Positions 547-25,798 of a stretch of 25,798 nt of DNA are shown here, piece by piece. The notes beneath the pieces were generated by a model. The model made no database searches and was not told the DNA's origin. It worked only from the letters and a program-made list of their open reading frames with translations. A program made the position numbers and the translations under genes. The stretch's first letter is position 1. Each line of letters opens with the position of its first letter. The stretch comes from an uncultured Pedobacter sp. (GTDB taxonomy: Bacteria; Bacteroidota; Bacteroidia; Sphingobacteriales; Sphingobacteriaceae), in assembly GCA_946478755.1 (NCBI GenBank), contig CAMLDJ010000050.1, forward strand, positions 1 to 25,798. The letters are read 5' to 3'.

Positions 547-564
547 CGGAATATAATTGTTTTC

Positions 565-598
565 TAAAGGTTATGAAGCTTGCTTAGGCTTATGCAGG
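565..598. repeat. Two-block leader repeat, copy A
   Basis: Block 1 (TAAAGGTTATGAAGCTTG, 565-582) and block 2 (GCTTATGCAGG, 588-598) both recur exactly at 12523-12540 and 12571-12581. Here they are 5 bp apart. The element lies in the gap between the DUF4843 and PKD-like genes, with block 1 ending 18 nt before the downstream start codon. Within the copy, GGTTATGAAGC and GCTTATGCAGG are themselves near direct repeats (8 of 11 positions). Function unknown. Confidence 0.6.
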
Positions 599-630
599 TT
601 TCATTTGAATCTTTGTTTGATGGTTAGAAA

Positions 631-1476: not shown

Positions 1477-1491
1477 GCTTATCTAGTTAAG

Positions 1492-2970: not shown

Positions 2971-2988
2971 CTGTTATAATATTAATTG

Positions 2989-5900: not shown

Positions 5901-6327
5901 TGATAGTTACATTTTCCAAAAGTTCTTTGGTTTCTGCATGGCGAACTGTGCCGGTTAGGGATTGCTGCTGCGCATTCGAAGCCGGTTTAACAGTCATTTC
6001 CGGCTGTGGGGTACCCGAAAGTGATATGGTCTTGTCTTCTATGACATAGGTTAAGGGCTGACCTTCTATGATCTTTTCCATAAACCGGGACAAAGGCATA
6101 TTTTTGGCGTCGACGGTGACTGGCTCGGCTGATGCGATAACTTTTTTAGTTCCAAAAACAGTGTAACCACTTTGTTTTCTAATGGCGTCGATCACAGTCG
6201 AAAAGGGGATGTTTTTTCCTTTGAGTGTGATCTGCTGGGAATAGCTGGAGGCACTTACTGTCGTAAATCCCGCTATAAGTAAGAACATGATGATTTTCAT
6301 CACTCGTGTAAAGTAATATATATTCAT
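2989..6327 (-). CDS. SusC/RagA TonB-dependent outer-membrane transporter with STN domain
   Basis: The 1112-residue product imports substrate through the outer membrane with SusD, powered by TonB. In order: signal peptide (cleavage near VSA, about residue 26; Met10 is an alternative start); STN secretin/TonB short N-terminal domain, about 31-105; carboxypeptidase-like regulatory domain, about 122-197; a TonB-box-like NEVVVTG at 204-210; plug, about 215-345, with LFILDGFES and RVESITLLKDASATAIYGSK; then a long beta-barrel ending in phenylalanine, as outer-membrane proteins do. The STN domain is the part that talks to a FecR anti-sigma factor, which fits the FecR and ECF sigma genes immediately upstream. 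Between fecR and this gene lie 160 bp containing a strong hairpin. Length and architecture are normal for the signalling subclass. Confidence 0.95.
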   Translation of the reverse strand: MNIYYFTRVMKIIMFLLIAGFTTVSASSYSQQITLKGKNIPFSTVIDAIRKQSGYTVFGTKKVIASAEPVTVDAKNMPLSRFMEKIIEGQPLTYVIEDKTISLSGTPQPEMTVKPASNAQQQSLTGTVRHAETKELLENVTIKLKGSSLTSSTNSKGQYRLTIPLSDKKQTLVFSYVGMKTQEISYQKQEKLDIELQPDEGAMNEVVVTGIFQRERQSFTGSSTRFSAKELQIVGNQGILQSLKTLDPSFAIIDNNTFGSDPNRFPDIEIRGKSSVIGLTDEYSSNPNQPLFILDGFESTLAIISDLSMDRVESITLLKDASATAIYGSKAANGVVVVETKRPTAGSLRINYNFSSSVSFADLTDYNLMNAEEKLQFERLSQFYGLLNADGDIIVGSNAVSEANYFNRLKEVRRGVNTYWADEPLKTAISQRHTLFAEGGDANLRYSVSLNYGLTPGVMEGSNRTATNGNIRLLYRKGSVSVNNTLSIDNVVANRETQPFSKFSRANPYYRKYDDEGNVRMILEDFKALGNTSLVPIYSPLYDQSNLNINSSASQGFTNNFEAEWRIMESLRARARFGIRSFRTQDEIFRSPFNTEFLQTDVLQRGRYDETNGKDVNYDGDLSLTFGKLFAARHMINAVAGMRMEQNVRNQSAFGVSGFVDDEFSNPSFALGYKEGQRAGYQESKRRGASFFMNFGYAYDQRYLIDATVRSDGSSIYGSSRQFSTIWSVGLGWNVHKESFLSASSWINQLRLRGSIGNPGNQNFDDYISARVYRYNNENRNPFGASAIISNMGNSNLRWQTTLDRNIGLDFTTLENRFRVTFDYFVKNTDPLLVLLTLPSSTGVARVAQNIGEQLTNGLTLTTDYTILRRDEVNWRVNLNLRRFKSEYRKMGNQLDNFNLANRSRNMVRYYDGGSPSDLWSVRSVGIDPATGREIFLNKNNEQTFVYNYQDEVVVGNSEPDLEGIIGTSFLYKGFTASVNLRYRLGGQAFMNTLYDKVENITTQRVALNQDKRALYDRWQKPGDNAKFKAISRTEYTPMSSRFVADNNMLVGESFSLGYETSRASWLRSIRASSITFRAYMNDIFYVSTIKNERGLDYPFARSVSFSAAVRF

Positions 6328-6387
6328 TAATTTTACGTTGGTTTAGTTGGTGCAATGTCTGCTTCTACGTTTTGGCTGGGCGGCACT

Positions 6388-6434
6388 AATCAGACCTTAG
6401 GGGGAAGGATGGCAGTCCTTTTCCCTTTCTGATT
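6388..6434 (-). other. Long imperfect hairpin in the susC 5' leader
   Basis: Arms AATCAGA (6388-6394) and TCTGATT (6428-6434) pair over 7 bp. A 5/2-nt internal loop follows, then GGGGGAAGGA (6400-6409) pairs with TCCTTTTCCC (6416-6425) over 10 bp, two of them G-T, closing on a 6-nt loop. It lies between fecR and susC, about 60 nt upstream of the susC start. No T-tract follows on the minus strand, so it is not a standard intrinsic terminator. An attenuator, processing site or mRNA-stabilising structure separating regulator from transporter expression is plausible. Confidence 0.6.
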
Positions 6435-6487
6435 TTGGCGCTCTTTTTCGGGTCAGTTTTTTCTCATATGCGTTTTTGTTTTTTGGT

Positions 6488-7657
6488 TTACATTCTGTTC
6501 TTTTTTCCTTTTATGGTCAGTTTTCTGTGGAGTACATCAAGGCTATAGTCAATTTCGGCAACATCCAATAAGCGTAAAACAAGGCTGATGTTCTGGTTAC
6601 GAAAGGCATCACCTACGAGTTCTTCTTTTGGTATTTCTTTGTCATATACAATATCCAGATCATACCAACGTCCGATATCATTCATGGTCTCTTCAAACGT
6701 TTTTCCGTCAAAACTAAACTTGCCATCTCGCCAGGCGGTATAATTAGCTGGATTTACGGATTTTACTGTCGTTTTTCCCATAGTGGTAATGGCCTGTTCG
6801 TTCGGCTTCAGGATAAAGCGGCCTTGCTGACCGCGGACCGCAACTTTTCCTTCAACAAGTGTCGTCTTGCCAGCTACTTGCCCGGCGTAGGCGTTCATGT
6901 TAAATTGCGTACCGAGGACTTCCACTTCCTGTTGCTTGCTGATGACTTTAAAGGGGATCTTCTCACCGCTTGTACGGAATATTGATTTCACTTGAAAAAA
7001 GGCTTCACCTTCCAGTTCGACAATACGTTCTTCCGCATTGAAGTGCAGCGGATATTTGATGGTACTCTGGGCATTGAGCCAGACCTGAGAACCGTCTGGT
7101 AAAATGATTTTATAAGTGCCTCCGCGAGGGGTATGAAGGGAAAGTAATTTTTGGGCATCTGCGGATTGTCCGGCTGCGGTGTTTTCTACCGGGCTACCGT
7201 CCGTGTAGGTGATTTTTTCTCCTGCTACAATACCTGCCTGGGAATTTTTCAGTTGAATTGTCCGCCCGTTGGAAAGGGTGAGCGTTGCTTTGTTGCCCCC
7301 AGGTTCAATGCTTGTCTGTACATGTTCCGAATTCCCGACTGGTGTGTTGTATTCCAGTACCATCCAGGTTCCAAATGCAACGATAAGTATTGCCGCTGCT
7401 GCTGCGGTTATCCAGCGGGCTTTAAACCGAATTTTGAGCGGTAGTTGAACCCGATCTTTTCCTACTTTAGACAACAGTTGGGCCAACATACGTGATTTGA
7501 TCACATCATGGGATTCATCCGTTGTTGATGGGATAATTACCTGCTCGTCGTCATGGCTGTTATACCAATCCATTAGGATCTGCAGTTCCTCCGGACTGAT
7601 ACTTCCGTTATTAAATTTAAAAACTAAATGTTCTATATTTTCGGTGTTCAAGGGCAT
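6488..7657 (-). CDS. FecR family anti-sigma factor
   Basis: The 389-residue protein has a short cytoplasmic N-terminal region (1-80, the sigma-binding part), a single transmembrane helix (about 82-101, AAAAAILIVAFGTWMV), a periplasmic FecR domain at about 173-275 (HTPRGGTYKIILPDGSQVWLN, EGEAFFQV, VLGTQFNMNAY) and a C-terminal DUF4974/STN-like domain at about 312-385. It is expected to hold the ECF sigma factor at the inner membrane and release it when the SusC STN domain signals that substrate is bound. It lies 60 bp downstream of the sigma gene and directly upstream of susC, the standard order sigma, anti-sigma, susC. Length is normal and no defect is visible. Confidence 0.94.
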   Translation of the reverse strand: MPLNTENIEHLVFKFNNGSISPEELQILMDWYNSHDDEQVIIPSTTDESHDVIKSRMLAQLLSKVGKDRVQLPLKIRFKARWITAAAAAILIVAFGTWMVLEYNTPVGNSEHVQTSIEPGGNKATLTLSNGRTIQLKNSQAGIVAGEKITYTDGSPVENTAAGQSADAQKLLSLHTPRGGTYKIILPDGSQVWLNAQSTIKYPLHFNAEERIVELEGEAFFQVKSIFRTSGEKIPFKVISKQQEVEVLGTQFNMNAYAGQVAGKTTLVEGKVAVRGQQGRFILKPNEQAITTMGKTTVKSVNPANYTAWRDGKFSFDGKTFEETMNDIGRWYDLDIVYDKEIPKEELVGDAFRNQNISLVLRLLDVAEIDYSLDVLHRKLTIKGKKNRM

Positions 7658-7717
7658 TATATTTGCTTTTCTACCTGTATAGACAGAAAAATATGGCCTA
7701 GGGGTGAGTGCAACTGA

Positions 7718-8308
7718 TTAATTTTTGAAAAAAATATAAGCAGATATCAATGTGGTCAGCAAATTGATATTTCCCTGAATATCCCTGTTCGCTTTTTTGA
7801 TATGTGATTTGATCGTGTTTTCCGAGAGATTTAATCTTTCGGCGATCTCTTTATTAGAAAGGCCTTCCTGCCGGCTAAGTTTAAAGACGATTTGACATTG
7901 AGGGGGAAGTGAGTTGATGGAATTGTCTATCTGCTCCTGTAATTCACGTATGATCAGCTGACGTTCTGGTGAAAGCAGGTTGATGTCTTTCGCGGGAGTA
8001 TAGTTTTCGGACTTGATACGTTCACGATAGCGCCGATCCAGTATATTGAAGGATTGGTTACGTATGGCGCGGGCCAGGTAATTTGAAAGCTCAACTTTTG
8101 CAAGCGAAAAATCATCGCGCAGTTTCCAGAGCTTATACAGCACGTCTTGAACACATTCTTCAGCTTCTTCCTGATTGCCCAAACGATTAAAGGCTACTGC
8201 CAGCATTTTGTCCCAATAACGATTATAAATCTCTATCAATACACGTTCGTCACCATTTTGCATAAGTTGGACTAGCTCCTGATCTCCATATGATTGATAT
8301 TGCCCCAT
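7718..8308 (-). CDS. ECF RNA polymerase sigma factor (Bacteroidota SusCD-associated type)
   Basis: The 196-residue protein has sigma region 2 at about 24-64 (IYNRYWDKMLAVAFNRLGN, AEECVQDVLYKLWK) and region 4 at about 126-175 (INSLPPQCQIVFKLSRQEG, then the HTH SNKEIAERLNLSENTIKSHI). It ends in a short hydrophobic tail. It should direct RNA polymerase to the SusC operon and perhaps its own, under control of the FecR protein encoded 60 bp downstream. The start at 8308 is supported by a -7 box at 8328-8335 that leaves a 5' leader of only about a dozen bases. The family corresponds to the Bacteroides expansion family of sigma-70 factors. Confidence 0.94.
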   Translation of the reverse strand: MGQYQSYGDQELVQLMQNGDERVLIEIYNRYWDKMLAVAFNRLGNQEEAEECVQDVLYKLWKLRDDFSLAKVELSNYLARAIRNQSFNILDRRYRERIKSENYTPAKDINLLSPERQLIIRELQEQIDNSINSLPPQCQIVFKLSRQEGLSNKEIAERLNLSENTIKSHIKKANRDIQGNINLLTTLISAYIFFKN

Positions 8309-9505: not shown

Positions 9506-9922
9506 CTATTGAAAAATGAGGATAATGGTGCCGCCTATAATCATCAATACGGCAATTACTGTTTTATAGGTAAGGGGCTCCCCAAGAAAAATAACAGATA
9601 ACAATAAGACAATGGCTACACTGGCCTTGTCTACCGGAGCGACCTGCGAAACCTTGCCAATTTGCAAGGCTTTGAAGTAAGATATCCAGGACAATCCTGT
9701 TGCCAGGCCTGACAGGACCAGGAAGATCCAGTTCTGTTTTGTTAAGCTGGAAATGCCTGCCTGCCCGCCTCTAATGAAAACGATTGCCCAGGCCAAAAGC
9801 AATATGATAACGGTTCTGATCGCGGTAGCTAAATTTGAATCGATACCTTTTATTCCAATTTTAGCGAGGATTGCCGTTAATGCTGCAAAAAAAGCGGAAA
9901 GTAAAGCGTAGATCCACCACAT
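9506..9922 (-). CDS. Half-size EamA/DMT family transporter
   Basis: The product is a small integral membrane protein of about 138 residues with one EamA domain, where classical EamA transporters have two. Five hydrophobic segments can be seen, from WWIYALLSAFFAALTAIL through VIILLLAWAIVFI and WIFLVLSGLATGLSWISYF to the C-terminal VIAVLMIIGGTIILIF. The segment YFKALQIGKVSQVAPVDKAS is typical of single-domain EamA proteins, which are thought to work as dimers in export of small metabolites. The ATG at 9922 is preferred. The frame can be extended 7 codons to a TTG at 9943, but that TTG falls inside the -7 box at 9941-9948. It appears to be a single-gene unit; substrate unknown. Confidence 0.85.
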   Translation of the reverse strand: MWWIYALLSAFFAALTAILAKIGIKGIDSNLATAIRTVIILLLAWAIVFIRGGQAGISSLTKQNWIFLVLSGLATGLSWISYFKALQIGKVSQVAPVDKASVAIVLLLSVIFLGEPLTYKTVIAVLMIIGGTIILIFQ

Positions 9923-9940
9923 ACGGTCTGAATTTATGAC

Positions 9941-9948
9941 CAAATATA
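9941..9948 (-). promoter_or_regulatory. Bacteroidota -7 box of the EamA gene
   Basis: TATATTTG on the minus strand matches TAnnTTTG exactly and ends 19 nt before the first base of the ATG at 9922, the same geometry as the sigma-gene box. It overlaps the TTG codon at 9943, which argues that TTG is not the start. A TTTG lies upstream at a longer than usual spacing (about 25 nt), so the -33 element is uncertain. Confidence 0.6.
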
Positions 9949-15214: not shown

Positions 15215-16615
15215 ATGAATGCGAAACGGTATAAGCTATATAAAGTATTAATAGGCCTGGGGCTTCTTGCCAGTTGCCTGCCGGTATCGGCGCAAAGTCA
15301 GGGCGCGAAAAAGCAGCAATCACGACCGAATATTATCATTATTCTGACCGACGATATGGGCTATGGTGATGTCGGGACATTTGGCGGCAATTTTGTGCAG
15401 ACACCGAATATAGATAAGATTGCAGCCAAGGGGCTAAAGCTTAGTCAATATTATAGTGGCGCTCCAATATGTTCCCCTTCACGGGCAAGCCTCTTTACTG
15501 GCATGCATCCCGGAAAATGGAACTTCACCACTTTTCTTGACACTAAAAAACACAACAGAAATGCTGAGCAGATTGATTTTTTGAGCACGGAGGCGCCCTC
15601 AATCGCCAGGTTCTTTAAGCAGTCGGGCTATACAACAGGGCATTTTGGAAAGTGGCATATGGGGGGCGGAAGAGATGTAACTGGCGTACCTGGCTTCGAT
15701 AAATATGGTATTGATGAGCATGCAAGTACTTATGAAAGCCCTGATCCAGATCCCGCAATTACTGCTGCCAACTGGATCTGGTCTGAAAAAGACAGCATCA
15801 AACGATGGGATAGAACAAAATATTTCGTGGATAAGACCTTAGATTTCATGAAGCGGCACAAAGGAACGCCTTGTTTTGTGAACCTTTGGCCGGATGATGT
15901 GCATACACCATGGGTGCCTACGAGTGGAACTGAATTTAACGGCAAGTTTCCAATGAACCCTCAGGAGGAGGCCGCATTTAAGGGGGTATTGAAAGCATAC
16001 GATGTCCAAATTGGCCGCTTGCTTGACGGATTGAAAGAGATGGGACTTGCAGAAAATACCATCATCATCTTTACCAGTGACAACGGACCAGCTCCGAGCT
16101 TTAGGGGAAGCAGGAGCGGCGGTTTTCGGGGAGCCAAAGCTTCCCTGTATGAGGGAGGAATCCGTATGCCCTTTATCATCAGTTGGCCCGGACATATCCC
16201 TGCCGGCAAAACCGATGAAGGTTCTGAGTTGAATGCAACCGATTTATTACCCTCGCTAGCAAGGATGGCCGGTGTTAAGCTTCCTCATAACTACCGGGGA
16301 GATGGCATTGACCGGTCCGAGCTTTTGCTGGGCAAGCCCTCGTTAAGGAAAAAGGATATGTACTGGGAATACGGAAGAAATGACATCGCTTATGGCTTCC
16401 CGAAAGGCCGCGACAGGAGCCCGAGACTGGCTATACGATCCGGTGAATGGAAGCTTTTGATGGATAGCGATGGCCGTAAAATTGAGCTTTACAATATTGT
16501 CAGGGATGCTAAAGAGACCACTAACCTGGAAGCTGAAAAGGTAAAGATAAGAGAGCAGCTGAGTGGTAAATTGATGGCGTGGTGGAAATCGCTCCCAAAA
16601 CTAAGTGCGAACTAA
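15215..16615 (+). CDS. Exported S1-family sulfatase (arylsulfatase-type)
   Basis: The 466-residue enzyme should remove sulfate esters, probably from sulfated glycans. It has an N-terminal export signal ending near VSAQS; LLASC at residues 17-21 could alternatively be a lipobox. The catalytic set is intact: TDD (45-47, metal ligands), Cys86 in ICSPSRASLFTG (the C-x-P-x-R signature whose Cys becomes formylglycine), HFGKWH (143-148), and TSDNG (287-291, metal ligands). Length is normal. The 213 bp upstream separate it from rocF and contain no gene; I found no full -7 box there. A second sulfatase follows after 33 bp. No maturation enzyme (anaerobic SME or FGE) is in the window. Confidence 0.93.
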   Translation: MNAKRYKLYKVLIGLGLLASCLPVSAQSQGAKKQQSRPNIIIILTDDMGYGDVGTFGGNFVQTPNIDKIAAKGLKLSQYYSGAPICSPSRASLFTGMHPGKWNFTTFLDTKKHNRNAEQIDFLSTEAPSIARFFKQSGYTTGHFGKWHMGGGRDVTGVPGFDKYGIDEHASTYESPDPDPAITAANWIWSEKDSIKRWDRTKYFVDKTLDFMKRHKGTPCFVNLWPDDVHTPWVPTSGTEFNGKFPMNPQEEAAFKGVLKAYDVQIGRLLDGLKEMGLAENTIIIFTSDNGPAPSFRGSRSGGFRGAKASLYEGGIRMPFIISWPGHIPAGKTDEGSELNATDLLPSLARMAGVKLPHNYRGDGIDRSELLLGKPSLRKKDMYWEYGRNDIAYGFPKGRDRSPRLAIRSGEWKLLMDSDGRKIELYNIVRDAKETTNLEAEKVKIREQLSGKLMAWWKSLPKLSAN

Positions 16616-16648
16616 TCTTTTACGAATACCTATTAATCAGGTGAAAAA

Positions 16649-18067
16649 ATGAAAATAAAATCGAAACTGATTCCTATTTGTGCATCAATTGCTTTACTCA
16701 TCCTGGCACAATCCTTTACCAAAAATGCCGGCAATGAACAAAAAGCGAAATCAAAACCTCCGCAATCCCGGCCGAATATTGTGATTGTAATGGCTGACGA
16801 CCTGGACAGCAGGCAACTGAGCTGTTACGGTGGGAAAAATCTGCAGACGAGAAACATAGACGCATTGGCGTCCGAAGGGATGAAATTTGAGCAAATCATC
16901 TGTTCGGAGGCGATGTGCGTGCCGACCAGGGCATCCCTGTTTACAGGGCTTTTCCCAATGAGACACGGTTCTTTTCAGAACCATAAATCAGTTTATAATA
17001 CCGGACTAAAAAGTATTTGCCAGTATCTGAAAGCCCAAAATTATAGTGTTGCCCTAACTGGAAAAAACCATAGTACTAAACCTGAATCGGTATTCCCATT
17101 TGAGTTTATTAAGGGATTTCAGCCCAACTGTGTTTCAGCAAATGATGATTATCAACTTGACAGCATCAGAACATTTATCACTCGAAAGAACGCAGATCCG
17201 TTTTGCCTTTTTGTCATGAGCATTAACCCACATGCGCCCTGGGTATCGGGCGATCCGACAGAGTTTGACCCTGATAAAATAGTCCTTCCACCACACATGG
17301 TGGACACGAGGGATGTACGGGAGCTGTATTGTAAGTATCTGGCGGAAGTCAGACGATTGGACAATCAGGTCGGTGACATTAGAAATCTTTTGAAAGAAAC
17401 GGGACAGGATAAAAATACCATCTTTATATTTCTGGGAGAACAGGGGCCACAGTTTCCCGGCGGGAAATGGACCTTGTACGACAATGGTCTGAAAAGTTCC
17501 ATGATTGTGAAATGGCCGGGAAAAGTAAAGGCTAATGTGACCACAGATGCCATCGTACAATATGAGGACATCACTCCGACATTGATCGATATTGCAGAAG
17601 GTAAACCCATCAAAGGATTGGATGGACGTAGCTTTTTACCCGTGCTTACTGGTAAAAGCAATTCGCATAGAACCGAAGCTTTCGGAATACACAACAACAT
17701 ACCTGAAGGTACACCTTATCCAATGAGATCGGTTCGTGATCATCACTATAAATTGGTGATGAACCTTTTGTCTGATCAGCCATATTATATCAAGTATATG
17801 ATGAATCCTGCAAATAAGAAGAGCTATTGGAATGCATGGGTAACCCAGGCGCAAACCTCGTCGGAAACAAAGAGACTGGTAGACAGAATCACCACGAAAC
17901 CCGCTTTAGAACTTTATGATCTGCAAAAAGATCCTTATGAGTTAAACAACATCGCTGGAGACAAAAAGTACGAAAAGCTTGTTCAGGCTTATGAATTGAA
18001 ACTAAAGAACTGGATGGAGCAACAAAATGATCCGGGTGCTTCCGTCGATCGTGTATACTCAAGGTAG
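16649..18067 (+). CDS. Exported S1-family sulfatase of the E-Q variant subfamily
   Basis: The 472-residue protein starts with an apparent signal peptide (IPICASIALLILAQS). It has the formylglycine signature Cys90-V-P-T-R, the metal-binding ADD (49-51) and GKNH (138-141) in place of GKWH. Where canonical S1 sulfatases have the ligands D-N in TSDNG, this one reads LGEQGPQFPGGKWTLYDNGL, i.e. Glu263-Gln264. I recall this E-Q form, followed by FP-x-x-KWT-x-YD, in a subfamily often annotated as heparan N-sulfatase-like, so the enzyme is probably active but with another substrate than its neighbour. An AGGTGA at 16639-16644 is a fair ribosome binding site. It forms an operon with the upstream sulfatase and converges on the GH1::RmlD gene 18 bp away. 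Confidence 0.9.
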   Translation: MKIKSKLIPICASIALLILAQSFTKNAGNEQKAKSKPPQSRPNIVIVMADDLDSRQLSCYGGKNLQTRNIDALASEGMKFEQIICSEAMCVPTRASLFTGLFPMRHGSFQNHKSVYNTGLKSICQYLKAQNYSVALTGKNHSTKPESVFPFEFIKGFQPNCVSANDDYQLDSIRTFITRKNADPFCLFVMSINPHAPWVSGDPTEFDPDKIVLPPHMVDTRDVRELYCKYLAEVRRLDNQVGDIRNLLKETGQDKNTIFIFLGEQGPQFPGGKWTLYDNGLKSSMIVKWPGKVKANVTTDAIVQYEDITPTLIDIAEGKPIKGLDGRSFLPVLTGKSNSHRTEAFGIHNNIPEGTPYPMRSVRDHHYKLVMNLLSDQPYYIKYMMNPANKKSYWNAWVTQAQTSSETKRLVDRITTKPALELYDLQKDPYELNNIAGDKKYEKLVQAYELKLKNWMEQQNDPGASVDRVYSR

Positions 18068-18085: not shown

Positions 18086-20230
18086 TCAGGAAGTTTTTCT
18101 GTGGAGAAAAAAGCTGTCTAGGGCATGGTCCAGGCTAGGCATAAGGATACCGCGACTGCTTTTCAGCGCACTGAATAATGGGCGCTCGGCCTGGAAACCG
18201 AGGTCGGCAAGAGTTGAGGGTATCAAGAGCGCCTGATTAAAGCCAGCGCGTGCAGTTACTTCTTTTGCCAGATCAAACCAGCTCACTGTACCATAATTGG
18301 TAAGGTGCCAGATACCGGACTCGTCATCAATCATCAGATCTATCGTGCGGTCGACCAGGTCAGGAACATAGGTCGGTGAGATGAAAACATCTTCCGCAAT
18401 TCTTAAGGTCCGTTTTTCCTGTAAAGACCGGAGCGTTTCGTATACGAAGTTGTATTGGTCCCAGGGCCCGAAGAAAGCACTCGTCCTGATGATCAGGGCC
18501 TCCTGATTTTTGTTTAAAACCTCATGTTCTGCAGCTGCCTTACTTAAACCATAAACATTAAGCGGATTTACAATGTCCTCTTCAAGGTATTCTGCTTGTT
18601 TTCTTCCATCGAAAACAAGATCGGAAGAAAACGTTACTAACTTAACACCATATTTTTTGCAGCATGATGCCAGATTTCCTGGTCCCATGGTATTGCTCAA
18701 AAAACAATCGCGATATTCGAGCTCAGCAGCATCAACATTTACATATCCTGCGGCATTAAGGACCGCCCAGGGCCTATGTCTTTGAATTACATCTTCAATC
18801 TGCCCGGGATAGATCAGGTTGACCTCATTTTTCACAGGTGCAACATAGTTGATGTCGCGCCGGATACAAGCCCTCATCAATGCATTGCCCAGGGTGCCGC
18901 TTGCGCCGATGATCAGAACTGGAGGGCTGTTTCTGCTGGTTACCTTATGTTTAAAAAGTGCCCGGTCGGGATAGATGATCCTGCTTTCATTCTCCCACCA
19001 TCCTTCTCCGTTCAATACCGGGTGCTGGTAGTTCCTTCCGCTAGCCAGATGTTTAACCATTTTGGAAAGTGCGGTTGCCCTGGGGCTGCGTGAGCTGATA
19101 TCAAAAGTGCCACTCTCATAGTTTCCTGCGGGGAGCGTTAGTAAACTATCCCAGCCATAAGCCCCAAATAACGACCATACCGTTACCGCACGGATATCCA
19201 CACGCTCTCTTTCCAGCTCATTTGCTGCCTTCCAGATGTTGTTTAACCACCTTAGCTGATCTTCCCTGCCGCAATATAGGTGGGCTTCGGTAATTGCCAT
19301 AGGCACCTTGTACCGGTCCCAGGCTTCCCGTAAGACTGCTTTTGCTCCTTGAGGTTTGACTGCTGCTACCCGTATGGCTTCGACGTCTGCATAGCTGCAC
19401 TTTCCGTTACCGCCGTGTAAATGTTTCGGATAGCCATCAGTCTGCTCGTCAAGATAACGCTCAGAGGTAATGTAATGGTTAAAACCCATGATATCGGGAA
19501 TGGTAAGATGGGCTATGAAAAAATCTAGTTCTAATTCGCCAATACCATTTGCGATGAGGTGGTTAAACATCGGATGGTCCCTATTGATCCTTCCACAGAT
19601 CAGGTCCAGTCCAAGCCACCGGCGTTCATTCTCAAAGTCTGCCTGATACTGCAAGCCGGGACTGCTGTACACCTTTCCCAGGTCTTCAGTATGGACCAAT
19701 TGAGCAAGTGGGTTAATTTCTCTGATGGCCTGCATCGCCTTAACCGTGGCCTTGCATTCGTTGACGAGGATCCTTAAAAAAGTTTTTTCATTAGCTGCAT
19801 GCGGATGCCAGAACCCGTAAAGTCCGCAGAATCTGGCAGTGGTAAGCGGTTCATTTACAGGGGTGAAGTGGTTGATCCATGGAAATTTCAATGCAACCTG
19901 CCGGGCATACCTGGCCAGACCCTCCTCAAAGGTAGGGTCAGTGAGCCTCACATATTTTGGCCCGCTGCCATGATGTACCAATCCTGCGATTACATCAACG
20001 CTGTTTTCTTTCAGAAATGATAAATTATCGGCTATTACGCCCCAATCTGTGATTGCAACTTCCCGCTGGTGTTCTTCCCATAAAACGGGATACCTGACTT
20101 TTTTGATACCCAGCTCAGCTATGAGTTGCGGATCGTTTATTCTGTCGTAATGTCCCTGGTAAACCAGCTGATTAAAATACTGATCTTTAACCCTGTTGAT
20201 GGTGCATTCAATGCCGCCCCAGACTTCCAT
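18086..20230 (-). CDS. Fusion of GH1-like glycosidase with RmlD-like sugar-nucleotide reductase
   Basis: The 714-residue protein has two enzymes in one chain. Residues 1-400 form a GH1-type TIM barrel with acid/base Glu127 in FTPVNEP and nucleophile Glu315 in MAITEAH, so retaining glycosidase chemistry appears intact. Residues 437-705 form an RmlD/extended-SDR domain with GASGTLG (442-448), LNAAGYVNVDAAE, FSSDLVFDG and the catalytic Y560-G-L-S-K564. RmlD enzymes reduce dTDP-4-keto-rhamnose or related 4-keto sugars with NAD(P)H. There is no signal peptide, so it acts in the cytoplasm. Its ATG lies 23 nt inside the end of glf, indicating tight coupling. I recall this fusion as present but uncharacterised in diverse bacteria. 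Activities of both halves are inferred; the linker and missing RmlA/B/C genes leave the substrate unknown. Confidence 0.88.
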   Translation of the reverse strand: MEVWGGIECTINRVKDQYFNQLVYQGHYDRINDPQLIAELGIKKVRYPVLWEEHQREVAITDWGVIADNLSFLKENSVDVIAGLVHHGSGPKYVRLTDPTFEEGLARYARQVALKFPWINHFTPVNEPLTTARFCGLYGFWHPHAANEKTFLRILVNECKATVKAMQAIREINPLAQLVHTEDLGKVYSSPGLQYQADFENERRWLGLDLICGRINRDHPMFNHLIANGIGELELDFFIAHLTIPDIMGFNHYITSERYLDEQTDGYPKHLHGGNGKCSYADVEAIRVAAVKPQGAKAVLREAWDRYKVPMAITEAHLYCGREDQLRWLNNIWKAANELERERVDIRAVTVWSLFGAYGWDSLLTLPAGNYESGTFDISSRSPRATALSKMVKHLASGRNYQHPVLNGEGWWENESRIIYPDRALFKHKVTSRNSPPVLIIGASGTLGNALMRACIRRDINYVAPVKNEVNLIYPGQIEDVIQRHRPWAVLNAAGYVNVDAAELEYRDCFLSNTMGPGNLASCCKKYGVKLVTFSSDLVFDGRKQAEYLEEDIVNPLNVYGLSKAAAEHEVLNKNQEALIIRTSAFFGPWDQYNFVYETLRSLQEKRTLRIAEDVFISPTYVPDLVDRTIDLMIDDESGIWHLTNYGTVSWFDLAKEVTARAGFNQALLIPSTLADLGFQAERPLFSALKSSRGILMPSLDHALDSFFLHRKTS

Positions 20231-21353
20231 GATCTGTCGTAATTAAGTATCTGTTCGCCGTTATTCCGCTGGTAATCTTTTTGAATGTTGACAGGGCCTG
20301 CGCAACAACCTGATCCATGTTGTAATATTTATAGGTAGCCAGCCGTCCAACAAAATGAGTGCTGTTTAATTTTTTTGCCAGGTCTTCGTACTTGCGGTAA
20401 AGCTCCGCATTATCCGGTTTCGGAATAGGGTAGTAGGGATCTCCCTCTGCTTTTGGAAACTCATATACGACAGAGGTCTTACTGTGTTTCTGGCCACTCA
20501 GATATTTGAATTCCGTTATCCTCGTAAAAGCATAATCATTTGGATAGTTTATCGTTCCGGTTTCTTGAAATACTTCCTGATCATAGGTCTCAAACTTAAA
20601 CTCAATTGAGCGGTAAGGGAGCTTCCCATACCGGTAATTGAAAAACTCATCTATCGGACCAGTGAAGATCAGCTCTTTATAGCCGATTTCATTGATGATG
20701 TCTTTATAATCCGTATTTAACATGATGTTGATAAACGGATGGTTGAGCATCTGCTCAAACATTTTTGTATAGCCATGTAAGGGCATAGCCTGATAAGTAT
20801 CTGTAAAGTACCTGTTGTCTTTATTGGTTCGTGTCGGAATCCTCGCCGTAACTGAGGCGTTGAGTTCAGAAGGATCTAAGTCCCACTGCTTTTTGGTATA
20901 TCCTTTAAAAAACTTTTCGTACAATTCCCTTCCAACGGCATTAACAACAACATCTTCGGATGTGCTTACCTCTTTCCGTTTTTCTGAACAGGATTCGAAA
21001 AAACTGCGCAGCTCATCGCTGGACAAATTTAATCCATACATGCTGTTAATGGTGTTGAGGTTAATGGGGATGGGGAACAGCTGCCCGTCTACATTAGCCA
21101 GTACGCGATGCTGATAGTTTCTCCATTTTGTAAACTGCGACAGATAGTCGAAAACCTGCTTGCTGTTGGTGTGAAAAATATGAGGGCCATATTTATGGAC
21201 CAGGACTCCGGACTCGTCATAATGGTCATAGGCATTCCCGCCTATGTGATTTCGTTTGTCGATGATTAACACTTTTTTATTGGCCTGGCTGGCCAACCTT
21301 TCTGCCAGCACGCTTCCTGCGAATCCAGCTCCCACTATCAAATAATCATACAT
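20208..21353 (-). CDS. glf: UDP-galactopyranose mutase
   Basis: The 381-residue flavoenzyme interconverts UDP-galactopyranose and UDP-galactofuranose, the donor for galactofuranose in surface glycans. It shows the FAD Rossmann motif VGAGFAGS (7-14), RNHIGGNAYD (34-43), HKYGPHIFHT (53-62), PIPINLNTIN, FFKGYTKKQW, and near the C-terminus FVGRLATYKYYNMDQVVAQAL, all Glf hallmarks. Length is standard. It starts 3 bp after the glycosyltransferase gene and overlaps the next gene by 23 bp, so the three are one operon. This places Galf or a related sugar at the centre of the cluster's chemistry. Confidence 0.95.
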   Translation of the reverse strand: MYDYLIVGAGFAGSVLAERLASQANKKVLIIDKRNHIGGNAYDHYDESGVLVHKYGPHIFHTNSKQVFDYLSQFTKWRNYQHRVLANVDGQLFPIPINLNTINSMYGLNLSSDELRSFFESCSEKRKEVSTSEDVVVNAVGRELYEKFFKGYTKKQWDLDPSELNASVTARIPTRTNKDNRYFTDTYQAMPLHGYTKMFEQMLNHPFINIMLNTDYKDIINEIGYKELIFTGPIDEFFNYRYGKLPYRSIEFKFETYDQEVFQETGTINYPNDYAFTRITEFKYLSGQKHSKTSVVYEFPKAEGDPYYPIPKPDNAELYRKYEDLAKKLNSTHFVGRLATYKYYNMDQVVAQALSTFKKITSGITANRYLITTDHGSLGRH

Positions 21354-21356
21354 AAA

Positions 21357-22511
21357 TTAACTCGCTATAGAGATTGTGTTGTTGTTTACGTTCAATGTAC
21401 TGCGGATCTGTTTCCGCATTTCCATATAAGTGTCGTCCCAGGAAATACTACTTAAAAATTGATCTACATTGCTGAGCCATGCTTTATGTTTAGGTTGCTT
21501 TAATTCGAGCGCGATTGCCTCAATAAATTCATTTGCTCCAGCGGCAATAGAAACCAGCTTTTTGATGCCGTATGGTTTGATCACGTCTTTTATCGAAGTA
21601 GAAACCACCGGAATGCCGGCTGCGAGATATTCCGGGGTTTTGGTTGGACTAATATAACGCGTTGAATCATTCAGCAAAAAAGGAATCAAGGCCACATCCC
21701 AGCCCGAGAGGTAGGCCGGCAGCTCCGCATATGATTTTTGTCCCAGATAGTGAATATTTGGATTTTTTGGAAGGGTAGCCTCATCAATTTTTACTACAGG
21801 TCCAATTAATATCAGTTGCCAGTCTGGGCGTTGTTCTGCGATCCCCCTAATCAATTCAATATCAAACCTTTCATCAATTACCCCGTAAAAACCAATTTTC
21901 GGCCCCCTAATGCAAGCCTGATCGCCCGGTTCCCCGCGCTGTTTCCTTGCTCTTGCGAAATGTTCCTTCTCGATGCTGCTGGGAAAAGGAAAAATATTGT
22001 TATGCTGGTCTTTCTTCGCCTCATATAAGGAATGCCCGCCGGTAAAAACCAGATCCGCTCTGCTCATCAGTTTTTTTTCGAATCCTGGTAATTCTTCAGG
22101 TGCGAACTTGAAGGCGGACAGTTCGTCCATACAGTCATAGATGGTCAGTTTTGGTTTGTATTTCTCTGAAAACTCAAGAGCCATGGGTGTATAATACCAG
22201 AATATCCAGTCTTCTAACACAGCATCTTTGAAAAAACCGGCTAACAATGTCGTTATCGCTGAGACCGTCCCCTTTCTATCCGTTTTATGTTTACCCAAAT
22301 GAGGCGTAATGACCCGCAATTTTTCTCCCCTATTAGAAATGTTTAAATGATCTTCCTGATCTGAATCAAAATGCGGTTCTTCAAAAAAGTAAACATTCAT
22401 GTCCTTTCCAAATCGACTCAGTAGGTGTTGTGGACGCTGAAATACAAAGTCCCATCTCAAATGTGAAAAACACATAAGATTTCTAGGCGGAGTTTCAATT
22501 GAGCTTTTCAT
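21357..22511 (-). CDS. GT-B fold glycosyltransferase linked to glf
   Basis: The 384-residue protein opens with CFSHLRWDFVFQRPQHLLSR (14-33), has YDCMDELSAFKFAPEEL (125-141) in the N-terminal Rossmann domain, KIGFYGVIDERFD at the start of the second, and the donor-binding SPTKTPEYLAAGIPVVST (288-305, with Glu294) typical of GT1/GT4-like enzymes. No signal peptide or membrane segment is visible, so it works at the cytoplasmic side. It is the first gene of the operon with glf and the GH1::RmlD fusion. It may transfer galactofuranose from the UDP-Galf made by glf, but donor and acceptor are not shown by the sequence. Confidence 0.87.
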   Translation of the reverse strand: MKSSIETPPRNLMCFSHLRWDFVFQRPQHLLSRFGKDMNVYFFEEPHFDSDQEDHLNISNRGEKLRVITPHLGKHKTDRKGTVSAITTLLAGFFKDAVLEDWIFWYYTPMALEFSEKYKPKLTIYDCMDELSAFKFAPEELPGFEKKLMSRADLVFTGGHSLYEAKKDQHNNIFPFPSSIEKEHFARARKQRGEPGDQACIRGPKIGFYGVIDERFDIELIRGIAEQRPDWQLILIGPVVKIDEATLPKNPNIHYLGQKSYAELPAYLSGWDVALIPFLLNDSTRYISPTKTPEYLAAGIPVVSTSIKDVIKPYGIKKLVSIAAGANEFIEAIALELKQPKHKAWLSNVDQFLSSISWDDTYMEMRKQIRSTLNVNNNTISIAS

Positions 22512-22935
22512 AGTAGGTTTTTAAAAGTTAATACAATAGTTAGCAGGAGTAGCCGGAATTGTTTAAGGATTCCTTTAGATATTTAAACAACAACCGCTAA
22601 ACAGGCCATATTGTTTCTGATTTATATACGTGTTTTAACGGAAAAAGGCTCTTTACTATAGGTAGAAATACGTAATAACGTTAAAGAGGGGAATCAAAGA
22701 AAAATTTCCGGTTAGCAGCCAATTAGCTGGGATAAATACCTGTTTTTAGGAGCGAAGTTCCCAATTAAAGGAATCAAACTACTCGAAAGTGTCTTTTTGA
22801 AATGACATTGCACTCTTAGAATGAGGTATTTCGGCCTGCGGCCTGGTTTCAGAAGGGTCCGATCAGATTTCACCTGCACTGCATGGAACAAAAATTGTGA
22901 TTTTTCTGTTGTGAAAGAAGATATCCATTGGGTAG
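22512..22935. promoter_or_regulatory. Divergent 424-bp regulatory region of the glycan cluster
   Basis: No gene is seen here. It holds the divergent promoters of the glycosyltransferase (minus) and GH2 (plus) genes. Visible structure: a perfect 8-bp inverted repeat, TTGTTTAA (22559-22566) and TTAAACAA (22583-22590), in the glycosyltransferase leader; two copies of TTAAAG...GAATCAAA (22681-22698 with 4 extra bases, 22765-22778 without); and a tandem CGGCCTG pair (22832-22845). No exact TAnnTTTG was found on the minus strand. Confidence 0.4.
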
Positions 22936-24780
22936 ATGCTGTCCCTTAAACTTGCTACTATGAATAATTCCCACCCAAATTATAGTTTAACAAAGTGCAA
23001 AAACGATACGGAAACTGATGAGGGCTTCATTAATCCGTTGCCAAGGGCGGTGTTGCGGCCAAATTCATTTGTACTGTTAGATGGAAGCTGGAACTTTGAA
23101 CATGATCCCAGAAATAGGGGCCTTGCTGAGGCCTGGTATGTTTCGCATAAATACACCGGGACGGCAGACTGGCCGGGCAGCGTTGAGTCGCATATGGTTG
23201 CTTTAGACCCGACTATCGGCCACTGGCGTGATCAGGTCATCGTTTGGTATGAAAGGTGTTTCCCCCTTCCTGATCTGGAGGAAAAATCGCCGAATTCACA
23301 GTTGCAATTAACTTTTGGTGCCTGTGGATATGCCACCAAAGTATGGCTTAACGGCCTTCCTTTAAAAACAATTGAAGGAGAGGAAAGGCACGTTGGTGGC
23401 TACACTTCTTTTTCCTACGAACTTGATGACATCATATTGGTCGCCGAAAACCGGCTTACGGTGCGCATACAAGGTACAATGGATGCAGATACGCCCCGGG
23501 GCAAGCAAGAGTCAGTTGTTTACAAACGAGGTGGAATCTGGTACCAGACCTATACTGGAGGAGTGCGCAGTATCTGGCTGGAGACCGTAGAGCGGAACCG
23601 GCTTCGTTCCAGAATTGGGGTGGTTAGCCTGGTTGAAGATAATCTGGTACGCTTGAATTTAACAACCCGGATCCACAATCCGGGCCATTACACCATTAGA
23701 TTGCGGGTATTCCATAAGAATCAGGAAAGCGATCAGCCAATTGCTGAAGATAATTATCCGCTGCTTTTGGAGGCTGGCCAGAAGCAACAGCGCCTGGTCA
23801 TCGAAATTCCTGATGTTAAGTTGTGGTCAATTGATTCGCCGCACCTGTACCGGCTTAAGGCGCAGCTAATTGATAAAGATGGTTATGTTGCCGAGATTGA
23901 AGCTCGTTTTGGCCTGAGAAAGGTTGAAGCCCGCGGCTCAGCGGTTTATCTAAATAACAAGCCAATTTATTTAAACGGTATTCTTTATCAGCCGGGTATC
24001 GCGGGGTATGAAGAGATCAAGCGGCATATGCATGCGATGAAACAGCTGGGCTGTAACATGGTGAGGATCCACATCGCAGGTGTAGATCCGCGGATCTACA
24101 ATCTTGCAGATAAGCTTGGGCTGTTGCTGTGGGTAGAAGTTCCCAGTCCCCACCGGTCAACGGTCAAAAGCAGGGAAAATCATAAGGGTGAGCTCTTCAG
24201 GATGCTTGATGTTGTTGGTACGCATCCATCGGTTATCATATGGAGCCTGTATAATGAGAGCTGGGGTGCACAGGATATTGCCACAAACAGAGCCACGCAA
24301 AAATACATTGTAGACATGTATCATTTTATGAAACTTGCGCATCCTCAGTTCTTAGTGGTTGACAATGACGGCTGGCAACATATCTCCTATCTTGGACGTT
24401 TGAAAAGTGATCTGTTAACCGCTCATCTATATACACCTGACCGGGAAAAATGGGAAGAGATGCTGGATAATCTAATCGCAGACCGCCCGGACAATGTTAC
24501 GGCTTTGCCACTTATTGTTGGTGATCCTTTCTTTTTTCGCAGGCAAATGCCGCTGATCATTAGTGAGTGGGGGGGCTTCGGCTTTGTAGACTATGGGGGG
24601 CCACAGGACGATATGGAACGGGCAGAAAAAATTAAGCTTTTTAAAAAGGAGCTGAGAAAGCGCCCTATAGCAGGAGACGTTTATACACAGGCAACAGATA
24701 TTGAGGAGGAAAAGAACGGCCTGATCGATTTTAACACCGGTACCCTGCAGGTTCCGCCTGGTCTGTTCGACTCCCCATAG
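22936..24780 (+). CDS. Cytoplasmic GH2 family glycosidase (beta-galactosidase/glucuronidase-like)
   Basis: The 614-residue protein has the GH2 order: jelly-roll sugar-binding domain (about 35-215, with LLDGSWNFEHDP and YERCFPLP), immunoglobulin-like domain (about 225-330) and TIM barrel (about 335-600). The acid/base Glu441 is in WSLYNESWG and the nucleophile Glu544 in LIISEWGGFG; DVYTQATDIEEEKNGLIDF matches the family's last barrel motif. Catalytic residues are therefore complete. Unlike most Bacteroidota GH2 enzymes it lacks a signal peptide. The ATG at 22960 (residue 9) is an alternative start, favoured if the -7-like box at 22947-22954 is real. It is transcribed away from the glycosyltransferase-glf operon. 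Substrate is unknown; a cytoplasmic glycan intermediate is likely. Confidence 0.9.
   Translation: MLSLKLATMNNSHPNYSLTKCKNDTETDEGFINPLPRAVLRPNSFVLLDGSWNFEHDPRNRGLAEAWYVSHKYTGTADWPGSVESHMVALDPTIGHWRDQVIVWYERCFPLPDLEEKSPNSQLQLTFGACGYATKVWLNGLPLKTIEGEERHVGGYTSFSYELDDIILVAENRLTVRIQGTMDADTPRGKQESVVYKRGGIWYQTYTGGVRSIWLETVERNRLRSRIGVVSLVEDNLVRLNLTTRIHNPGHYTIRLRVFHKNQESDQPIAEDNYPLLLEAGQKQQRLVIEIPDVKLWSIDSPHLYRLKAQLIDKDGYVAEIEARFGLRKVEARGSAVYLNNKPIYLNGILYQPGIAGYEEIKRHMHAMKQLGCNMVRIHIAGVDPRIYNLADKLGLLLWVEVPSPHRSTVKSRENHKGELFRMLDVVGTHPSVIIWSLYNESWGAQDIATNRATQKYIVDMYHFMKLAHPQFLVVDNDGWQHISYLGRLKSDLLTAHLYTPDREKWEEMLDNLIADRPDNVTALPLIVGDPFFFRRQMPLIISEWGGFGFVDYGGPQDDMERAEKIKLFKKELRKRPIAGDVYTQATDIEEEKNGLIDFNTGTLQVPPGLFDSP
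22947..22954 (+). promoter_or_regulatory. Possible -7 box overlapping the first GH2 ATG
   Basis: TAAACTTG fits TAnnTTTG at five of six fixed positions; a TTG at 22928-22930 is 16 nt upstream. If used, transcription would begin at or just before the ATG at 22960 and that codon, not the one at 22936, would be the start. Equally it may be chance. Confidence 0.25.
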
Positions 24781-24878
24781 TGTCCCGGAAACTAGCTCCC
24801 TGGTTCATGCACAGTTTAATAAAAGGTATAGCACTTTTTGGTAGCGCTTGCCCAAAGAAAAAGAGCGGCTTAGGTGGT

Positions 24879-25619
24879 TTAAATATCTGTTAGAAAATAT
24901 CCGCAGGGATGGTCTTTCTCCAGGATGGGGAGGGCAACATTGAACACTTTCAACTCGCCACCCAGATAGCCCTGCAATTTTCCTGAATGGGCGTGCCCGT
25001 GAAAAGCTGCAGTTATATTTCTTCGAACAAGTGGTTCTGCGAGTCTGGAGCAGCCGAGGAAGGGATATATGGTTTCCGGCTCGCCAATAACCGTTTCAAC
25101 AATAGGGGAGTAATGCATTACTGCAACTTTTTTGATCTGGCCATGTTCCTGGTCAAGTCGTGCCAGGGCCCGGTCCAGCAGCAAGGCCTCGTTCACAGCT
25201 TCCTGCACAAAAGATTTCATTGCACTTTCCCCGAACATAGAAAGCATATGATTGTCAAATCCTCCGCCAAAACCTTTTATTCCGGCAAATCCAATACCTT
25301 CAACAACTACAGATTCGCCGTCAAGTATATACGTGTTATGCGTTTGCAGCCGGTGTCTGATTAGCTTCTCTCTTCCTTTTTCGTAGTCATGATTGCCAAG
25401 GACGGCAATTACCGGAATGGTGCATTGTTTCAATTCTTCTGCCAGTACTGCAGCTTCGGCTTCATCGCCTGTATTAGTGAGGTCACCGGCTATGACGAGC
25501 ACTTTTGCTACGGCTGAAATTTGCCTGAAACAATCAGCCCACTTTCCTTTGTCCGTTTCGCGTACATGGATATCTGCCATGGCCGCGATCTTTACTGTTT
25601 TTATTTCTGTCTCACTCAT
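24879..25619 (-). CDS. Calcineurin-like metallophosphoesterase
   Basis: The 246-residue protein carries the full metallophosphoesterase motif set: MADIH (14-18), AGDLTN (44-49), LGNHDYEKG, VMHYSP and FHGHAHSGK. No signal peptide is seen, so it is cytoplasmic. The segment GFAGIKGFGGGFDNHMLSMFGE, and GEPETIYPFLGCSRLAEPLV between the last two motifs, mark a distinct subfamily that I recall as widespread and uncharacterised. Its ATG comes 1 bp after the stop of the partial gene upstream, so the two are coupled. It converges on the GH2 gene with 98 bp between; that gap contains no clear terminator. It may remove phosphate from a sugar phosphate or cleave a phosphodiester in the glycan pathway. Confidence 0.88.
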   Translation of the reverse strand: MSETEIKTVKIAAMADIHVRETDKGKWADCFRQISAVAKVLVIAGDLTNTGDEAEAAVLAEELKQCTIPVIAVLGNHDYEKGREKLIRHRLQTHNTYILDGESVVVEGIGFAGIKGFGGGFDNHMLSMFGESAMKSFVQEAVNEALLLDRALARLDQEHGQIKKVAVMHYSPIVETVIGEPETIYPFLGCSRLAEPLVRRNITAAFHGHAHSGKLQGYLGGELKVFNVALPILEKDHPCGYFLTDI

Positions 25620-25620
25620 G

Positions 25621-25798
25621 TTAAGTCGTTTTGATGGTGCTTACCTTATAATTCCAGTTTCTAATGTCTACTTCATATTGAGTTTGGTCTATGACGGGAC
25701 CTCGGCAGACTTTTTCGACGGCGGGAGGGATTTCATACTGCTCCCTGGCACGTTCCATTAAAGTATCAAACAACCATTTTGGGATGATGTCGCGGTAA
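25621..25798 (-). CDS. Unidentified protein, C-terminal 58 residues only
   Basis: A minus-strand frame enters from the window edge and stops at 25621, giving 58 residues that include IPKWLFDTLMERAREQYEIP and GPVIDQTQYEVDIRNWNYKV. I do not recognise the family. The stop codon is 1 bp from the metallophosphoesterase ATG (TAAcATG), which is strong evidence that the frame is a real gene of the same operon. The rest lies outside the window. Confidence 0.6.
   Translation of the reverse strand, partial: YRDIIPKWLFDTLMERAREQYEIPPAVEKVCRGPVIDQTQYEVDIRNWNYKVSTIKTT

What the first reader, a model, noticed from the sequence alone, without database searches (positions are those of the whole stretch)
18086..25798. 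Candidate undescribed intracellular glycan system: GT, Glf, GH1::RmlD, GH2, phosphoesterase
Glycosyltransferase, UDP-galactopyranose mutase and the fusion are overlapping or nearly so; a divergent GH2 and a phosphoesterase coupled to an unknown gene adjoin. None of the five complete proteins has an export signal. I recall similar Glf / GH1::RmlD / phosphoesterase neighbourhoods in other phyla, which would imply a conserved module that travels as a unit. A cytoplasmic galactofuranose-containing glycoconjugate that is both built and trimmed would fit.
Basis: partly seen in the sequence, partly recalled or inferred. Interest (0 to 1): 0.8.

Follow-up and report, generated by a model that had tools for sequence, protein, structure and literature searches.

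The report
Intracellular galactofuranose make-and-recycle gene module
A small gene set found in several distant groups of bacteria appears to build a sugar compound containing the rare ring form galactofuranose, and also to carry apparently unsecreted enzymes that could take it apart again; the neighbouring phosphoesterase does not look like part of it.

Summary
Glycosyltransferase (GT), UDP-galactopyranose mutase (Glf) and the GH1::RmlD fusion form a real core: GT lay within 2 kb of the fusion in 71 of 90 loci, GT and Glf shared one open frame in 32 of 90, and GT occurred in 28 of 28 fusion genomes. The GH2 tracks the module in cyanobacteria: its orthologue was in 10 of 11 sampled genomes with this GT and 0 of 183 without; in Bacteroidota the link is weaker (4 of 16 against 0 of 231). 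Its frame overlaps galT in 12 of 21 cyanobacterial GH2 loci, and the window GH2's best solved match is a beta-D-galactofuranosidase. A crude test saw no export signal in the fusion, GH1 or GH2 frames. The phosphoesterase forms a separate pair with a nucleotidyltransferase; in 7 of 7 Bacteroidota genomes holding it, it lay on another contig or at least 197 kb from this GT. Best reading: a cytosolic galactofuranose glycoconjugate is made and galactose is recovered from it. The product is unknown; an envelope glycolipid remains a serious rival. Ten open-access searches listed no description.

The parts
18086..20230 (-). GH1::RmlD fusion: N-terminal GH1-fold glycosidase domain (about residues 1-425) with acid/base E127 and nucleophile E315 kept; C-terminal RmlD-type SDR domain (433-714)
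20208..21353 (-). Glf, UDP-galactopyranose mutase, closest to PDB 3HDQ (Deinococcus radiodurans enzyme; organism recalled)
   Evidence: TIGR00031 415.7 bits over cut-off 303.75; 3HDQ 603 bits against 305 for the next entry
21357..22511 (-). GT-B fold glycosyltransferase, distantly TuaH-like, no solved relative by sequence profile; in one open frame with Glf in 32 of 90 loci
22936..24780 (+). GH2 glycosidase without visible export signal, close to GH2 Group III furanosidases; E441/E544 kept, T584 in the YTQ.TD motif; likelier start 22960
24879..25619 (-). Calcineurin-like phosphoesterase; judged NOT part of the module (separate conserved pair with the next gene)
25621..25798 (-). 3' end of a nucleotidyltransferase-like gene (DUF2204 / NTP_transf_5 matches in the two full-length relatives scanned), partner of the phosphoesterase; cut by the window edge; not part of the module

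Best explanation
A cytosolic galactofuranose (Galf) pathway with its own turnover. Shown by sequence: Glf scores as a UDP-Galp mutase; the GT is its frequent neighbour or fusion partner; a GH1-type glycosidase is the usual third gene (here fused to an RmlD-type sugar-nucleotide reductase); an apparently unsecreted GH2 close to the furanosidase group co-occurs with them. Inferred: Glf makes UDP-Galf; the GT puts Galf on a cytosolic acceptor; GH2 cleaves Galf (or a related furanose) off again; the freed galactose returns through GalK/GalT (beside GH2 in cyanobacteria) to UDP-Gal. The GH1 domain trims or transglycosylates a second, pyranosidic linkage, and the RmlD-type domain reduces a deoxy-sugar nucleotide, possibly making dTDP-rhamnose, for the same product.
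For: GT within 2 kb of the fusion in 71 of 90 loci, and in 59 of the 71 loci with over 3 kb on both sides; GT and Glf in one open frame in 32 of 90. GT in 28 of 28 chosen fusion genomes, also where not adjacent. Phylum samples: 10 of 10 non-centre fusion genomes have GT, against 24 of 677 others (Fisher p 2e-14). Glf somewhere in 38 of 40 fusion genomes. In 24 GT-only genomes, Glf lies within 140 b of GT in 21, and a short GH1 within 111 b of GT/Glf (either strand) in 13 and 2.7-2.9 kb away in 2. N126, E127, E315 kept in 30 of 30 GH1-type sequences. GH2 in 10 of 11 GT+ and 0 of 183 GT- cyanobacteria (over 1000 bits; centre included; p 1e-14 without the centre); all 4 GH2+ Bacteroidota of 247 are GT+ (p 2e-4 without the centre). 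GH2 profile: 317-380 bits on 7XYR, 7SF2, 9J6N and 9J6M, next about 160; 9J6N, a beta-D-galactofuranosidase, is the window protein's best match. PMC12243196 (passages) puts 9J6M and 7XYR in Group III, with Araf/Galf activities and a Trp-to-Thr change; one search shows the matching YT(Q/E).TD stretch. GH2 and galT frames overlap in 12 of 21 cyanobacterial GH2 loci. No signal-like N-terminus in 99 fusion, 27 GH2 and 28 short GH1 frames.
Against: No product, acceptor or activity is known; Galf transfer by this GT is inferred from neighbourhood. The GT model resembles GT-B enzymes, several of them retaining, at about 14% identity; a retaining GT would give alpha-Galf, while GH2 Group III cleaves beta-Galf or alpha-L-Araf. 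In 18 of 90 loci GT is by the fusion with no Glf in the stretch, and 2 of 40 fusion genomes lack Glf. GH2 is absent from 12 of 16 GT+ Bacteroidota in the sample and from 13 of 31 fusion genomes tested. One GT- cyanobacterium (G320) has a weaker GH2 match, 316 bits. The window GH2 alone separates furanosidases from other GH2 only modestly (112.8 against 86.3 bits), and its best match is of GH2_18, which is about 80% secreted, unlike GH2_19 at about 10%. galK/galT are near the module in cyanobacteria, hardly elsewhere, and not in the window. RmlD falls short of the NCBIfam cut-off (213.4 against 224.05); rmlABC were not looked for. Fisher tests ignore kinship.
Confidence: 0.5

Rival explanations
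1. Envelope glycolipid or surface-glycan module. GT and Glf build a Galf-bearing glycolipid or polysaccharide at the inner membrane face; transporters or other GTs nearby finish and export it; the cytosolic GHs edit or recycle intermediates.
For: An ABC transporter protein of about 590-600 aa follows the short GH1 in Skermanella and Azospirillum records, and relatives of it are at 5 of 15 loci counted as proteobacterial. Large GTs follow GT::Glf in Sinorhizobium and Rhizobium. A capsule-type cluster with ABC permease and ATPase flanks it in Caballeronia. ABC-ATPase-type frames cluster in 9 of 90 loci, some of them Bacteroidota, and an MFS in 3 (not examined further). Envelope GTs (GumK, PglA, WaaG, PimB') are among the fold matches of the GT. 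Thermus thermophilus has a glycolipid ending in beta-Galf (PMC3398001, passages).
Against: No flippase, polymerase, ABC exporter or initiating transferase adjoins the module in the window (the nearest transporter-like match is an EamA piece at 9506-9943). Transporters are at a minority of the 90 loci. It does not by itself explain unsecreted GH1 and GH2 or the GH2-galT overlap.
Confidence: 0.3
2. Sugar scavenging: imported oligosaccharides are hydrolysed in the cytosol by GH2 and GH1 and channelled through GalK/GalT; GT and Glf are incidental neighbours.
For: galK/galT beside GH2 in cyanobacteria; ABC-ATPase-type frames at 9 and MFS at 3 of 90 loci could be importers; exported-type sulfatases and a SusCD locus elsewhere in the window.
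Against: GH2 tracks the GT in 10 of 11 against 0 of 183 cyanobacteria, also in genomes where it is on another contig or about 31 kb away; GT::Glf and GH1::RmlD fusions join parts that look synthetic.
Confidence: 0.1
3. Glycosylated secondary metabolite: the module decorates a natural product with Galf and a deoxysugar, and the GHs are maturation or resistance glycosidases.
For: RmlD-type domain fused to GH1; AMP-binding, acyl carrier and condensation-domain genes lie about 5-10 kb upstream in Gloeothece.
Against: Such genes are not among the recurrent neighbour clusters that I named (ten representatives; other clusters stayed unnamed); the core is shared across phyla.
Confidence: 0.1

Closest known systems
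UDP-galactopyranose mutase of Deinococcus radiodurans (PDB 3HDQ; its identity with DR_A0367 is recalled)
   Same: Best solved match of the window Glf, twice the bits of the next; in D. radiodurans a glf also follows a GT of this family.
   Different: No GH1::RmlD, short GH1 or GH2 is annotated in the D. radiodurans stretch viewed.
GH2 Group III (GH2_18/GH2_19) furanosidases, e.g. beta-D-galactofuranosidase 9J6N/9J6M
   Same: Closest solved structures; shared YT(Q/E).TD motif; NE motif and nucleophile Glu kept in the window.
   Different: Only about 110 bits to the window protein alone; specificity and subfamily untested.
dTDP-4-dehydrorhamnose reductase RmlD
   Same: C-terminal domain with GxxGxLG, YxxxK and SPT stretches (motif roles recalled); fold match TM 0.90-0.92 over the targets.
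   Different: Just under the TIGR01214 cut-off; fused to a GH1 domain; no rml operon in the window.
GH1 beta-glycosidases (e.g. Thermotoga maritima beta-glucosidase, 2J77)
   Same: Fold match and both catalytic Glu.
   Different: About 17% identity; N-terminal to a sugar-nucleotide reductase.
Galf-containing capsule / O-antigen / glycolipid clusters
   Same: Glf beside a GT.
   Different: No export machinery beside the module in the window; apparently unsecreted GH1 and GH2 instead.

Membership tests
UDP-galactopyranose mutase (Glf) | Score above the TIGR00031 equivalog cut-off over full length | tested here: met
   415.7 bits against 303.75, residues 1-360 of 381
UDP-galactopyranose mutase (Glf) | Mutase activity | not testable with these tools
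   Needs an enzyme assay
Glycoside hydrolase family 1 | GH1 fold with acid/base and nucleophile Glu | tested here: met
   Pfam 23.7 bits against cut-off 22.6; AF2/Foldseek to GH1 beta-glucosidases; E127 and E315 in 30 of 30 aligned and in A2, 22 rows
dTDP-4-dehydrorhamnose reductase RmlD | Score above the TIGR01214 equivalog cut-off | tested here: not met
   213.4 against 224.05 bits; so called RmlD-type, not RmlD
dTDP-4-dehydrorhamnose reductase RmlD | rmlA, rmlB, rmlC in the same genome | not tested
   No genome held for the window; not searched in relatives
GH2 Group III furanosidases | Closest solved structures are of GH2_18/GH2_19 | tested here: met
   Mixed profile (11 of 15 rows cyanobacterial): 7XYR, 7SF2, 9J6N, 9J6M 317-380 bits, next about 160; window alone: 9J6N first, narrower margin. 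7SF2's subfamily was not looked up
GH2 Group III furanosidases | Trp of subsite -1 replaced by a conserved Thr | tested here: met
   T584 invariant in 15 of 15, in line with YTQ of 7XYR and 7SF2 and YTE (9J6N), against VWNFAD in 4JKM; that this is the paper's Thr is my reading
GH2 Group III furanosidases | CAZy subfamily HMM and furanosidase activity | not testable with these tools
   CAZy HMMs not on hand; needs an assay
Exported Galf polysaccharide/glycolipid cluster | Flippase, polymerase, ABC exporter or initiating transferase next to GT/Glf | tested here: not met
   None beside the module in the window; present at some relatives
Polysaccharide utilisation locus | Secreted glycosidases with SusCD | tested here: not met
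   GH1 and GH2 lack signal-type N-termini; the SusCD genes lie at 1492-6327, about 12 kb away
Five-gene module including the phosphoesterase | Phosphoesterase recurrently near the fusion | tested here: not met
   1 of 90 loci; elsewhere in the genome in 7 of 7 Bacteroidota holding it. The closest relative, L010, ends 465 b beyond GH2 and cannot tell

The most novel reading that the evidence does not exclude
An undescribed cytosolic galactofuranoside cycle: bacteria of at least four phyla make a soluble Galf-containing glycoside (a store or protectant) and reclaim it with dedicated intracellular furanosidase and GH1 enzymes that feed galactose back to UDP-Galf.
Probability: 0.3. Interest if true: 0.85.

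Novelty: new variant of a known kind. Interest (0 to 1): 0.6.

Why it matters
Galactofuranose is known mainly from cell surfaces (general knowledge). A module that pairs UDP-Galf synthesis with apparently unsecreted glycosidases, one of them close to the furanosidase group and tracking the GT almost perfectly in the sampled cyanobacteria, points to a Galf compound turned over inside the cell. It would give a testable role to the D. radiodurans mutase, whose product I do not know, and to the GH1::RmlD fusion. That fusion is common: 120 of the 120 listed best hits cover it nearly end to end, out of 7997 scored at E <= 0.001, the rest of which I did not see.

Tried and rejected
Phosphoesterase as a member: rejected. 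'GT always with the fusion': rejected; 24 of 34 non-centre GT genomes lack the fusion, which exposed the short GH1 as an alternative third gene. GT family from solved structures by sequence profile: no match. GT stereochemistry from the fold: left open. Literature: the listings of ten searches showed no paper that describes this module; only open-access papers are held and I opened three, so this is weak. A link with dry or irradiated habitats was suspected from organism names (habitats recalled) but not tested against a background. The promoter/terminator scan gave nothing clearly above shuffles (7 promoter-like against 13.7, 11 terminator-like against 8.3, sd 2.8). The Pseudomonadota centre genome G012 (L049) nests with Mucilaginibacter and is probably a mis-binned contig, so the Pseudomonadota evidence rests on G179 and named plasmids. 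Clustering of neighbours left most clusters unnamed.
Full report
Observation. The ORFs and families are as described. Glf overlaps the fusion by 23 b and lies 3 b from GT, so GT-Glf-fusion reads as one operon on the minus strand. GH2 is divergent on the plus strand. The phosphoesterase is on the minus strand behind the 3' end of another gene. No whole genome is held for the window.

The core is real. A protein search scored 7997 proteins matching the fusion at E <= 0.001 (a capped candidate list); the 120 listed cover 98-100% of it and, where an organism is named, it is a Bacteroidota one. tblastn against plasmids found 19 records covering at least 80% of the fusion, in cyanobacteria, Bacteroidota, alpha- and betaproteobacteria and Deinococcus; I viewed 9 of these. 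Over these 9 and 80 and the window (90 loci), GT is in 73, within 2 kb of the fusion in 71, and within 2 kb in 59 of the 71 loci with over 3 kb on both sides. Glf is in 56, and GT and Glf share one open frame in 32. GT was found in 28 of 28 chosen fusion genomes, 26 of them at 599 bits or more; the Abditibacterium and Chloroflexota ones gave 359 and 374 bits. In evenly drawn phylum samples (249 Pseudomonadota, 194 Cyanobacteriota, 247 Bacteroidota; the centre genome included in each) the fusion occurred in 2, 7 and 4 and the GT in 10, 11 and 16; every fusion genome had the GT. Without the three centres, 10 of 10 fusion genomes against 24 of 677 others carry it (Fisher p 2e-14, kinship not corrected). 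Glf was somewhere in 38 of 40 fusion genomes, also where not adjacent; it was not found in G012 and G725. Tree distances of GH1 and GT correlate at 0.75 (81 loci), GH1 and Glf at 0.81 and GT and Glf at 0.92 (60 loci); relatedness alone will produce part of this. The GH1-domain tree is mostly phylum-structured.

The third gene is often a GH1. In 24 sampled genomes with the GT and no fusion, Glf lay within 140 b of GT in 21 (three showed none). A short GH1-like frame (about 370-505 aa, on either strand) lay within 111 b of GT/Glf in 13 and 2.7-2.9 kb away in 2 more; clustering without a length filter counted 16. Eight of the 90 fusion loci carry a further 402-405 aa GH1 (one is the doubtful L049). 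The 29 short GH1-type frames aligned (one is the GH1 half of L079) and the window domain all keep N126, E127 and E315. In Solirubrum (L079) GH1 and RmlD are two abutting frames. AF2 gives a two-domain fusion model (mean pLDDT 84.5) matching RmlD and GH1 enzymes.

GH2. It is in 21 of 90 fusion loci. In the cyanobacterial sample its orthologue (over 1000 bits) is in 10 genomes, all among the 11 GT carriers; the exception is G329, and 0 of 183 genomes without the GT have it. Two weaker matches, 316 and 293 bits, are in G320 (no GT) and G329. In G350 and G281 the GH2 is on another contig than the fusion and in G007 about 31 kb away. In the Bacteroidota sample the 4 GH2-positive genomes all have the GT, but 12 of the 16 GT genomes have no GH2 at this threshold. 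18 of 31 fusion genomes tested have GH2. The two GH2 branches are 27-29% alike. A mixed profile and the window protein alone both rank GH2 Group III structures first, and the alignments show the C-terminal YT(Q/E).TD motif. PMC12243196 (passages read) says Group III holds the Araf/Galf activities and has the Trp-to-Thr change, and that secretion signals are predicted in about 10% of GH2_19 but about 80% of GH2_18; the window's best match is of GH2_18. In cyanobacteria the GH2 and galT frames overlap in 12 of 21 GH2 loci (in four others GH2 sits near the edge of the stretch), galK is at 15 of 42 cyanobacterial loci, and an epimerase-family gene lies within 700 b of the fusion in 14 of 38. This is what a loop reclaiming galactose would look like; it is an inference.

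Location. With a hydropathy test on the first 45 residues, 0 of 99 fusion, 0 of 27 GH2, 0 of 18 and 0 of 10 short GH1 frames look signal-like; 1 of 71 stand-alone GT frames does (L049); four exported-type controls in the window all do. The test is crude. Glf passes it in 32 of 47 and so does the phosphoesterase, and frames were taken at their longest, so a signal behind a wrong start could be missed.

Phosphoesterase. Near the fusion in 1 of 90 loci; the closest relative (L010) ends too early to tell. Orthologues are in 8 of 28 fusion genomes (7 Bacteroidota at 61-71%, one Chloroflexota at 48%), in 8 of 8 beside a 247-291 aa gene related to the window's cut-off gene (divergent and only 28% alike over the matched piece in the Chloroflexota one); the two scanned match nucleotidyltransferase families. 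Against the GT coordinates, the 7 Bacteroidota copies lie on another contig (5; draft assemblies) or about 300 kb and 198 kb away (2). So the window's neighbourhood is local.

GT. No solved relative by sequence profile. The AF2 model (pLDDT 92.1) is a GT-B enzyme, best MshA at 14% identity; sucrose-phosphate, trehalose-phosphate and bacillithiol enzymes follow, but so do GumK, PglA, PimB' and WaaG, which serve the envelope or glycoconjugates (roles recalled). This does not decide between soluble and envelope products.

Judgement. Shown: the module, its breadth, the GH2 link in cyanobacteria, the independence of the phosphoesterase in the genomes tested. Inferred: Galf transfer, turnover, product. 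Transporters at some loci and the Thermus Galf glycolipid keep an envelope product open. Ten searches of an open-access library listed no description of the module; three papers were seen as passages only (PMC12243196, PMC7022480, PMC3398001).

Noticed in passing
window 24879-25798 and L090-L097: A conserved pair of calcineurin-like phosphoesterase and a nucleotidyltransferase-like protein (DUF2204/NTP_transf_5 matches) in 7 Bacteroidota genomes and one Chloroflexota genome; function unknown.
   Followed up: partly
L049 (G012): A contig labelled Rhodoferax nests with Mucilaginibacter in the GH1-domain tree; probably a mis-binned contig.
   Followed up: partly
L001-L089, record titles: Many carriers belong to taxa that I recall as dry-soil, crust, aerial, Antarctic or radiation-resistant (Microcoleus vaginatus, Scytonema, Nostoc desertorum, Abditibacterium, Deinococcus); an uncontrolled impression.
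   Followed up: no
L079:9992-12229: In Solirubrum the GH1 and RmlD parts are two abutting frames, a possible split or ancestral state of the fusion.
   Followed up: partly
L137, L140: Sinorhizobium and Rhizobium plasmids carry a long glf (GT::Glf) followed by two large glycosyltransferases; no GH1 is annotated there.
   Followed up: no
L005, L116-L118, L138, L139: An ABC transporter protein of about 590-600 aa directly adjoins the short GH1 in proteobacteria.
   Followed up: partly
D. radiodurans, PMC7022480 Table 1: dr_A0367 (UDP-galactopyranose mutase) is down-regulated in a deletion mutant of the heat-stress RNA dsr11 (passage).
   Followed up: no
window 15215-18067: Two sulfatases with signal-like N-termini in tandem on the plus strand, convergent with the fusion.
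   Followed up: no
window 1-8308: ECF sigma, FecR, SusC/SusD-like, DUF4843 and PKD-like genes: looks like an ordinary Bacteroidota uptake locus.
   Followed up: no
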